A stretch of 34,181 bases of DNA from Pseudomonadales bacterium (lineage in GTDB: Bacteria > Pseudomonadota > Gammaproteobacteria > Pseudomonadales > Azotimanducaceae): assembly GCA_022827905.1 (NCBI GenBank), contig JAJEIQ010000048.1:1-34181 (forward strand), read 5' to 3'. Positions 30,807-34,181 of this stretch are shown piece by piece. The notes beneath the pieces are model-generated. The model worked only from the letters and a program-made list of their open reading frames with translations. It had not been told where the DNA came from and made no database searches. The stretch's first letter is position 1; each line of letters begins with the position of its first letter. A program made the translations under genes and the position numbers.

Positions 30807-30846
30807 CAGCAGTTAAACCTCCTTACGTAGAACTAGACGCTACATT

Positions 30847-30978
30847 CGAGGGCGGGACGCCCTCGCCCCGACCTTTGCTCGAGGGCGGGACGCCCTCGCT
30901 CCGACCTTTGCTCGAGGGCGGGACGCCCTCGCCCCGACCTTTGCCCGAGGGCGGGACGCCCTCGCCCCGACCTTTGTT
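30847..30978. repeat. REP-like tandem array: four 33-base units
   Basis: Units start at 30847, 30880, 30913 and 30946. Each is the palindrome CGAGGGCG-GGA-CGCCCTCG (19 bases) followed by a 14-base spacer of the type CCCCGACCTTTGCT. They differ by one or two bases in the spacer. The unit length is a multiple of three, which keeps all frames open and creates spurious ORFs. The array fills the purH-purD gap, so both genes must be read through several strong hairpins if co-transcribed. Confidence 0.9.
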
Positions 30979-31028
30979 CGACGCCGTTCCCCGGAGCGAG
31001 GGCGACCTTCGTTCGAGCCCTCCCGGAG

Positions 31029-33191: not shown

Positions 33192-33684
33192 GACGCCGTC
33201 CCGTCAGACGTGCCCACTCGCCGTCAACGAATGGTGGATCAAACGCAAGGCCGGGGTAGGCGGGCAGCACGGCACCGACCTGCGATTCCAAAATGCCCGC
33301 CAGGACCAACTGCCCTCCGGATTTGAGGCAACCGCTGAGGGTCGGCCCCAACTCAATCAAGGTATTGGCGAGGATGTTGGCGAGCACCAAGTCGAACTCC
33401 AGTTGCGTCGGAAACTCCTCAGGAGTGATGACGGCATCCAAGGCAACGCCGTTGAAGCGTGCGTTCGCCTGTGTCGCCCAAAGCGCCTGTGGCTCGATAT
33501 CGACCGCCATCACGCGCGCTGCGCCGAGCAGGGCGGCGGCGATGCCCAGAATGCCTGAACCGCAACCGTAATCCAGCACCGAACGCCCCTCAAGACGGGT
33601 ATCCGCCAGCCAGGCGAGGCACGACCGGGTGGTTGGATGCTGTCCCGCGCCGAAGGCCAGGCCTGGGTCGAGACGCAACACGGC
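33184..33684 (-). pseudogene. prmA: 5'-truncated ribosomal protein L11 methyltransferase gene
   Basis: The last 166 codons encode the catalytic domain of PrmA, from AVLRLDPGLAFGAGQHPTT, through VLDYGCGSGILGIAAALLGA (SAM loop) and LVLANILANTLIELGP, to the end [10 protein letters not shown]. PrmA is normally about 290 residues, so the whole N-terminal L11-recognition domain is missing. The open frame continues to 33933, but those 83 codons run antisense through the REP fragment and the IS110 left end and have no PrmA character. The break lies between 33685 and 33709. The remaining part could only be made from a chance start and would lack substrate binding. Confidence 0.85.
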
Positions 33685-33708
33685 ACTAGGAAAGCTCCTG
33701 GCTCGATC

Positions 33709-33725
33709 CGAGGGCGGGACGCCCT
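33709..33725. repeat. REP core cut at 17 of 19 bases: IS110 target half-site
   Basis: CGAGGGCGGGACGCCCT is identical to the first 17 bases of the 19-base core in the purH-purD array; the next bases are TATCTG instead of CG. The match ends exactly after a CT dinucleotide (33724-33725), the expected IS110 core. Confidence 0.88.
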
Positions 33726-33740
33726 TATCTGTTAGATTTT

Positions 33741-33920
33741 CCCCTGCGGACCCGGAAACGGGATTGCCTCCCCGCCGCCCTAGGGCGGCGGGGAGGCGCG
33801 GCGGTCGGATCGTGGCGCCCTGGGTCATGAAGGACCGTGAGCGAGTGTGATCGGCCGCCGCCCGCACCCCAAACCCGTCCTGGATGGAAACGAGGGCATC
33901 AAGGCCCGCAGATAAGGAAA
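33741..33920 (+). ncRNA. predicted IS110 bridge RNA (boundaries approximate)
   Basis: Reading 5' to 3': a CCCG-GAAA-CGGG hairpin (33751-33762); a 32-base perfect palindrome (33766-33797); then a 13-bp stem (33798-33811 with 33849-33861, one bulged G808 and one G-U pair) closing a 37-base loop. In that loop GGCGCCCT (33814-33821) matches target GACGCCCT (33718-33725) in 7 of 8 bases, the exception being wobble-compatible. GGTC/GACC (33823-33826/33833-33836) forms an inner hairpin, and GAGCGAG (33839-33845) is complementary to CTCGCTC right of the core in REP unit 2 (30895-30901). Downstream, CAGATAAGG (33909-33917) is complementary to CCTTATCTG (33723-33731), the element's own left end. This is the left-target, right-target and right-donor guide order of a bridge RNA. 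The left-donor guide is probably near CCCGTCCT (33874-33881). Confidence 0.82.
33766..33797. repeat. 32-base perfect palindrome in the IS110 left end
   Basis: GCCTCCCCGCCGCCC (33766-33780), TA, GGGCGGCGGGGAGGC (33783-33797): every base pairs. It sits between the GAAA-loop hairpin and the target-binding stem of the predicted bridge RNA. It could be part of the scaffold, a DNA site for the transposase, or a REP of another family captured by the element. Confidence 0.85.
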
Positions 33921-33931
33921 GGAGACGGTTC

Positions 33932-34181
33932 ATGGATCATAGCACCGTTGGCGTCGACGTATCGAAGGCGCACCTGGACGCGCACTTGGCCCCCGAGGGC
34001 CGGGCGGCGCGCTTCCCCAACACGGCGGACGGCATCCGCCGGCTCGTCCGGTGGATCGGCGACGCGCCCGTGGACCGCGTCGCCTACGAGCCGACCGGGC
34101 GCTGGCACCGCCCGCTGGAGGCGGCGCTGCTGCGGGCCGGGCTGCCGGCCGCGGCGGCCAACCCGCTGCGGGCGCGGCGCT
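33932..34181 (+). CDS. IS110-family transposase, N-terminal part (runs off the window)
   Basis: 83 codons of the DEDD recombinase are present. STVGVDVSKAHLDAHL contains the first catalytic Asp, and RVAYEPTGRWHRPLEAALL the Glu of the RuvC-like domain; AAAANPLRARR is also typical of the family. The ATG at 33932 has GGAG eight bases upstream, directly after the right-donor guide of the bridge RNA. The C-terminal Tnp domain with the catalytic Ser and the right end lie outside the window. Confidence 0.92.
   Translation, partial: MDHSTVGVDVSKAHLDAHLAPEGRAARFPNTADGIRRLVRWIGDAPVDRVAYEPTGRWHRPLEAALLRAGLPAAAANPLRARR

What the first reader, a model, noticed from the sequence alone, without database searches (positions are those of the whole stretch)
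33741..33920. Bridge RNA of an IS110 element readable by eye, with guides matching its REP target and its own end
Three independent matches are found in the expected order. GGCGCCCT (33814-33821) agrees with the target left of the core (7/8, with the difference wobble-compatible). GAGCGAG (33839-33845) is complementary to an intact REP right of the core. CAGATAAGG (33909-33917) is complementary over 9 bases to the element's left end (33723-33731). The first two lie on either side of a hairpin inside one closed 37-base loop, which is how target-binding loops are built in IS621-type bridge RNAs. The chance of all three with a shared CT register is small. The guides here differ from IS621 as I recall it, so this may be an undescribed bridge-RNA specificity aimed at GC-rich REPs.
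Basis: partly seen in the sequence, partly recalled or inferred. Interest (0 to 1): 0.92.

Follow-up and report, generated by a model that had tools for sequence, protein, structure and literature searches.

The report
IS110 bridge RNA targeting REP palindromes
The end of this contig carries the left part of a small jumping gene whose non-coding RNA matches both the short palindromic repeats it lands in and the jumping gene's own end; it is a new, well-supported example of a recently discovered and already known kind of RNA-guided DNA recombination.

Summary
Window 33724-34181 is the left part of an IS110-group insertion sequence, cut by the contig end 83 codons into its recombinase gene. A covariance model from 13 relatives (12 from other genera, one distant element from the window's genus) finds a bridge RNA at 33796-33922 (77 bits, E about 6e-16). 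Its left donor guide (33874-33881) is wrong: that is a stem, and the guide is 33883-33891. Five other left ends in the genome sit at the same point of the palindrome GGGA(C/T)GCCC-CT-CGCTC. Across relatives with other sites, target guides follow their own flanks (0 of 20,000 permutations as good, left n=14, right n=9) and left donor guides their own ends (4 of 20,000, n=9); right donor is not significant. The recombinase of a full sister copy matches the IS621 and ISCro4 sequences. This is a new member of a known kind: IS110 insertion into REPs and bridge-RNA guidance are published. Whether these target letters are undescribed is open; supplements were not searched. No transcript or activity was tested.

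The parts
33709..33725 (+). Left half of the target palindrome (REP-like), CGAGGGCGGGACGCCCT, ending in the core CT (33724-33725)
   Evidence: four whole units lie at about 30842-30981 of the window; genome holds 161 exact GACGCCCTCGCTC and 103 GATGCCCTCGCTC
33726..33738 (+). Left terminus of the element: right donor TATCTG (33726-33731) and a -10-like TAGATT (33733-33738)
   Evidence: Six left ends share it; left of it they share only the palindrome; promoter reading from the sister copy's joined ends
33766..33797 (+). 5' stem-loop of the non-coding left end
   Evidence: Perfect inverted repeat (self match 33766-33797) and fold
33796..33922 (+). Bridge RNA target loop and donor loop
   Evidence: Model R1 from 13 relatives, without the window, C50 or L017: 77.1 bits, E 5.8e-16, E-values rough; pair counts of those relatives
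33814..33821 (+). Left target guide GGCGCCCT
   Evidence: 7 of 8 with own flank, the eighth rG:dT; family test over 14 elements
33839..33845 (+). Right target guide GAGCGAG
   Evidence: Complement of CTCGCTC, found after the right end in 5 of 5 right-flank contigs of sister copies
33875..33881 (+).
   Evidence: fold; helix 3 of the relatives: 94.2% of cells paired, one pair changed on both sides
33883..33891 (+). Left donor guide GATGGAAAC
   Evidence: Matches the sister copies' right end GATAGAAAC(T) in 8 of 9, the ninth wobble-compatible; family test n=9
33909..33917 (+). Right donor guide CAGATAAGG
   Evidence: 9 of 9 complement of 33723-33731; the A-to-G difference in C50's left end is matched by T-to-C in its guide
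33932..34181 (+). 5' end of the IS110 recombinase gene (83 codons, cut by the contig end)
   Evidence: PF01548 E 4.8e-7; 90% identical to the copy in C50
33184..33708 (-). prmA remnant (methyltransferase domain), interrupted by the palindrome plus insertion sequence
   Evidence: PF06325 profile positions 130-295 only; three relatives show a longer frame with an N-terminal part

Best explanation
This is the left end of an IS110-group insertion sequence with its bridge RNA gene. By analogy with IS621, the element excises as a circle; joining its ends places a -35-like box next to a -10-like box, so that the bridge RNA and recombinase can be transcribed. The RNA's first loop pairs with both sides of the palindrome GGGA(C/T)GCCC-CT-CGCTC, its second with the circle's own junction, and the recombinase exchanges strands at CT, placing the element inside one of the at least 264 copies of this palindrome in the genome. 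Shown by sequence: gene, RNA structure, guides, core, target. Suggested by sequence: the promoter. Inferred: transcription, binding, recombination.
For: Recombinase of the full copy on C50: PF01548 and PF02371 above cut-off; phmmer E 1.9e-33 to ISCro4 (9t56) and 2.5e-32 to IS621 (8wt6). Six left ends and five right-flank contigs in the genome join at the same point of the palindrome. Covariance-model hit without the window's own type in training. In 13 relatives 12 of 28 pairs change on both sides, 0 of 500 shuffles as high. Own against other flanks: left target n=14, own mean 6.79 of 8 against 4.37, 0 of 20,000; own flank best or tied best in 12 of 14 rows, strictly best in 6. Right target n=9, 5.89 of 7 against 4.61, 0 of 20,000. 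Left donor n=9, 7.67 of 9 against 6.26, 4 of 20,000. The best sigma-70-like pair spans the joined ends in 7 of 7.
Against: Right donor guide is not significant as a family test (1,449 of 20,000), since that end hardly varies. L047 fails the left target test (4 of 8) and L060 matches another element's flank better than its own; L018 and L053 fail the right target test (3 and 4 of 7). Elements from one genome are related, so permutations overstate independence, above all for the left donor, where four of nine guides agree over the whole compared stretch. The window copy's own right end and right flank are missing. Copies with guide GATGCCCT sit in GATGCCCT sites in 4 of 5 cases against 103 of 264 in the genome, not significant (binomial about 0.08, my arithmetic). 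The promoter score is ordinary for 3 of 7 junctions, C50 among them (89, 87 and 150 of 1,000 shuffles). Model R1 found nothing in 8 of 24 sources at E 0.1 or better, among them the relatives L023 and L024 with about 30% protein identity.
Confidence: 0.95

Rival explanations
1. The target-like letters in the left end are remnants of palindromes or chance G+C-rich similarity, and the recombinase finds its site by protein contacts alone.
For: The palindrome is very common here; 2,943 of 20,000 shuffles give a 7-of-8 match to the left target alone.
Against: In relatives with other sites the same loop positions carry the letters of those sites; structure covariation; 0 of 20,000 shuffles give all three matches in order.
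Confidence: 0.03
2. The ncRNA is real but acts mainly as a regulator of recombinase expression rather than as a guide.
For: PMC8450116 (listing and start of abstract) reports two small RNAs regulating the ISPpu9 transposase; the RNA lies directly upstream of the gene here.
Against: A pure regulator would not need guides that vary with the insertion site. The two roles do not exclude each other.
Confidence: 0.02

Closest known systems
IS621 of E. coli and its bridge RNA (PMC11208160: abstract, sections 5, 6, 7, 12 and passages seen; PMC11208158: passages seen)
   Same: DEDD plus serine-domain recombinase, ncRNA in the left end, target loop and donor loop each with left guide, inner hairpin and right guide, CT core, REP target, tolerated rG:dT in the left target guide.
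   Different: Distant recombinase (E 2.5e-32); target letters GACGCCC-CT-CGCTC instead of ATCGGGC-CT-AC; right target guide of 7 bases (4 in the IS621 structure; longer ones are already reported for some orthologues); right donor pairing contiguous over 9 bases, where IS621 has flipped-out bases.
ISCro4 (PDB 9t56)
   Same: Best solved relative of the recombinase by sequence, E 1.9e-33.
   Different: Only the protein sequence was compared; its guides were not examined.
REP-inserting IS elements ISPpu9, ISPpu10, ISPa11 and others (PMC1525189, abstract seen)
   Same: Specific insertion into REP sequences.
   Different: Other hosts and elements; no sequence was compared here.

Membership tests
IS110 family | Recombinase with N-terminal DEDD (PF01548) and C-terminal serine domain (PF02371) | tested here: met
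   both above cut-off in the full copy P0001 from C50; the window copy shows only its first 83 codons (PF01548 just above cut-off)
IS110 group (as against IS1111 group) | Bridge RNA in a long left end, short right end | tested here: met
   RNA at 33796-33922 in the left end; in C50 about 138 bases of element follow the gene, and model R1 gives no match there
IS1111 group | Bridge RNA in the right end and subterminal inverted repeats of 7-17 bp | tested here: not met
   RNA is in the left end; the only inverted match seen by eye is CAGATA (C50 right end) with TATCTG (window left end), 6 bases, 5 of 6 within C50
Bridge RNA | Two internal loops, 5' side matching the top strand left of the core, 3' side complementing the top strand right of it | tested here: met
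Bridge RNA | Guides covary with target and donor across homologues | tested here: met
   left target, right target and left donor; the right donor is not significant (1,449 of 20,000)
Bridge RNA | Promoter formed across the joined right and left ends | tested here: inconclusive
   best pair spans the junction in 7 of 7, but 3 of 7 (C50 included) are ordinary against shuffles, and three of the typed right ends began at or within a few bases of the -35-like box, which favours it
Bridge RNA | RNA is made, binds the recombinase and is needed for recombination | not testable with these tools
   No expression data or assay
Rfam families | Match to a curated RNA family | tested here: not met
   0 matches at gathering score in the window; 7 matches in 33600-34050 at E up to 10, all below their gathering scores
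REP (repetitive extragenic palindrome) | Short palindrome in many, mostly extragenic copies | tested here: inconclusive
   Palindromic and in at least 264 exact half-site copies; extragenic position not surveyed, copies also occur inside prmA; no associated RAYT enzyme was sought

The most novel reading that the evidence does not exclude
The gene for the right donor guide is, on the other strand, itself a copy of the element's right-donor site (CT-TGTCT). In a relative, one copy (L101) shows a right end joined exactly at CT to that site, with the recombinase gene turned round relative to the RNA. Bridge-RNA elements may thus carry a built-in pseudo-site at which their own recombinase can invert, invade or disable them.
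Probability: 0.15. Interest if true: 0.6.

Novelty: new member of a known kind. Interest (0 to 1): 0.38.

Why it matters
It shows that bridge RNA guides can be read from raw sequence and then checked with natural copies. It adds a family with natural target loops for a G+C-rich palindrome and, in relatives, for other sites: a ready set of matched guide and target pairs for choosing recombinases to test. It does not change the known mechanism.

Tried and rejected
Left donor guide at 33874-33881: rejected, it overlaps the donor-loop stem. RNAalifold's own small helix inside the donor loop (columns 85-97 of A2) was set aside for the closing stem 87-90 with 128-131; model R1 was nevertheless built with the RNAalifold structure. 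Finding the window's right flank through PrmA failed, so loss and assembly gap are not told apart. Preference of guide variants for matching palindrome variants: 4 of 5, not significant. Right-donor covariation: not significant. Genome contigs gave 3 relatives, viral contigs none. Plasmids gave 36 records, 35 of them under 60% identity, not followed up. Rfam gave nothing at threshold. Literature searches: IS110 and bridge RNA; palindromes in genes. In the titles and abstract starts listed I saw no mention of this palindrome as an IS110 target; supplements could not be looked up.

Rows dropped before the counts: 14 of the 19 aligned left ends were tested. L017 was dropped because its junction is anomalous; L057, L058, L062 and L063 because they repeat a target already present. 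L003-L006 were not entered: their visible RNA is the C50 type and stops in the target loop, and since contigs end in shared repeat sequence their letters may not be independent. The right target and left donor tests hold the 9 of 14 whose right end was known. Guide windows were cut by eye from the alignment. In one search only 150 of 3,857 first-look candidates were scored.

Full report
What is there. The contig ends inside an insertion sequence that starts at the core CT, 33724-33725. Six contigs of the genome share it from there on; left of it they share only the palindrome. 83 codons of an IS110 recombinase are visible. A complete copy lies on contig C50 (L002, 92% identical over the 458 bases compared) and encodes a 317-residue recombinase with both IS110 domains, whose solved relatives by sequence are ISCro4 and IS621. 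Four further left ends (L003-L006) and five right-flank contigs (L010-L014) are of the C50 type. This fits five C50-type copies plus the window copy, whose right side is not in the assembly.

Target. The six left flanks end in GA(C/T)GCCCT, two with C (window, C50) and four with T. The five right-flank contigs all continue CGCTC after the right end GATAGAAACT. Contig C31 shows further whole units TCGAGGGCGGGACGCCCTCGCTCCG beside the insertion, so the unoccupied site is GGGACGCCC-CT-CGCTCC. Exact GACGCCCTCGCTC occurs 161 times and GATGCCCTCGCTC 103 times in the genome, against 0 and 1 for the patterns read backwards.

RNA. 13 left ends of relatives were aligned: 12 from other genera and L019 from another species of the window's genus, whose protein is 51% identical. 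The structure has a target loop and a donor loop, each with an inner hairpin. For the structure I named, 97.5% of cells are paired, 12 of 28 pairs change on both sides, 0 of 500 shuffles reach that, and sliding the partners destroys it. A covariance model from these 13, without the window, C50 or L017, finds the window at 33796-33922 (77.1 bits, E 5.8e-16), C50 (87.1 bits) and L017 (78.9 bits) (calibration was short, so E-values are rough). Of 24 sources, 16 gave a match at E up to 0.1, among them the order-level relatives L080 (1.3e-6) and L064 (2.2e-6); 8 gave none (L020, L021, L023-L027, L079). In the whole genome the model gave two matches, window and C50 (150 of 3,857 candidates scored). 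Folding the window alone gives the same two loops.

Guides. The left donor guide is not at 33874-33881, which is one strand of the donor-loop stem; it is GATGGAAAC, 33883-33891, like GATAGAAAC(T) at the right end of the sister copies. Own-versus-other tests: left target n=14, right target n=9, left donor n=9, reached by 0, 0 and 4 of 20,000 permutations. Examples: L052, target GTGCACCT with guide GTGCACCC, and right side CTCACTTG fully complementary to its guide; L053, GCGTGTGCT in both target and left guide, though its right side fails; L051, right end ACGGATTCT with donor guide ACGGATTGT where G225 copies have ACGGATACT and ACGGATACA. Failures: L047 left target (4 of 8), L060 matched better by another element's flank, L018 and L053 right target (3 and 4 of 7). 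The right donor is not significant as a family test (1,449 of 20,000), as that end is nearly invariant; but the window and L017 carry TATCTG with guide GATAAGG and the other 17 aligned left ends carry TGTCT with GACAAG or GACAGG, a matched change that may have arisen only once.

Mechanism. Published work on IS621 shows that such RNAs, made from a promoter that forms when the ends join in the circle, guide recombination at a CT core (PMC11208160, sections 6, 12, 7 and 5 seen; passages of PMC11208158). In 7 of 7 joined ends assembled in a script the best sigma-70-like pair spans the junction; in four at most 18 of 1,000 shuffles are as good, in three 87 to 150, C50 among these. Transcription, binding and recombination of this element are inferred.

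Consequence. In three relatives (G007, G008, G004) prmA has a longer frame with an N-terminal part. In G008 the palindrome sits in frame in the stretch between the two parts of PrmA; in G007 it is absent. In the window the gene is cut at a palindrome in that same stretch. The N-terminal part was not found in the assembly (weak negatives), so prmA is probably broken here.

Novelty. Insertion of named IS elements into REPs was published in 2006 (PMC1525189, abstract) and RNA guidance of IS110 and IS1111 elements in 2024 (PMC11208160; PMC11187229, listing and start of abstract only). New here, as far as I could look, are this element family and its target letters. The right donor pairing of 9 contiguous bases differs from IS621's, which has flipped-out bases; 5 of 19 aligned elements lack the extra base at that place and 14 have it. 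Longer right target guides are already reported. That makes it a new member of a known kind.

Noticed in passing
L101 (G226:C1:2272500-2282500), about 2443-2650: A left end and bridge RNA run up to the right donor guide and are joined there, exactly at the core, to a reversed right end, so that the (truncated) recombinase gene points the other way; inversion and insertion of a second copy are not told apart. The pattern ACAYGGATWCTTGTCT, which excludes right ends of the window's type, occurs once in 206 genomes of the family, here.
   Followed up: partly
L017 (G004:C40), both junctions: The half-sites look exchanged: left GAGGGCGGG then AAACT-TATCTG, right GACAAGACGG then GACGCCCT-CC, as if the crossover lay about six bases left of the CT core. 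One G is unaccounted for, and the draft assembly has a run of N in this copy.
   Followed up: partly
L018, minus strand, about 620: The right end ATAGGTACT is followed by TGTCTGGCGG, like the element's own right donor, and not by the site its right target guide predicts.
   Followed up: no
L095 (relative G008) prmA; window 33709-33725: A REP-like palindrome lies in frame inside PrmA in one relative and is absent in another; the window's insertion lies in a palindrome in the same stretch.
   Followed up: partly
window 30842-30981: Four palindromes at 33-base spacing; one has CTCGCTCC on the right, the other three CTCGCCCC.
   Followed up: no
L055, L058, L061, L062, L063 (G225): Several copies sit in one repeated target, left side TTCAGGCG(C/T)T (L055, L058, L062, L063), right side CTCGCCGACC (L055, L058, L061, L062), which looks like part of another transposase gene (recalled resemblance, not tested).
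   Followed up: no
L065, L073, L075, L085, L086: These more distant relatives share the right-hand junction CACAGTCACT-TGTTA and then differ, which resembles integron attC ends (recalled, not tested).
   Followed up: no
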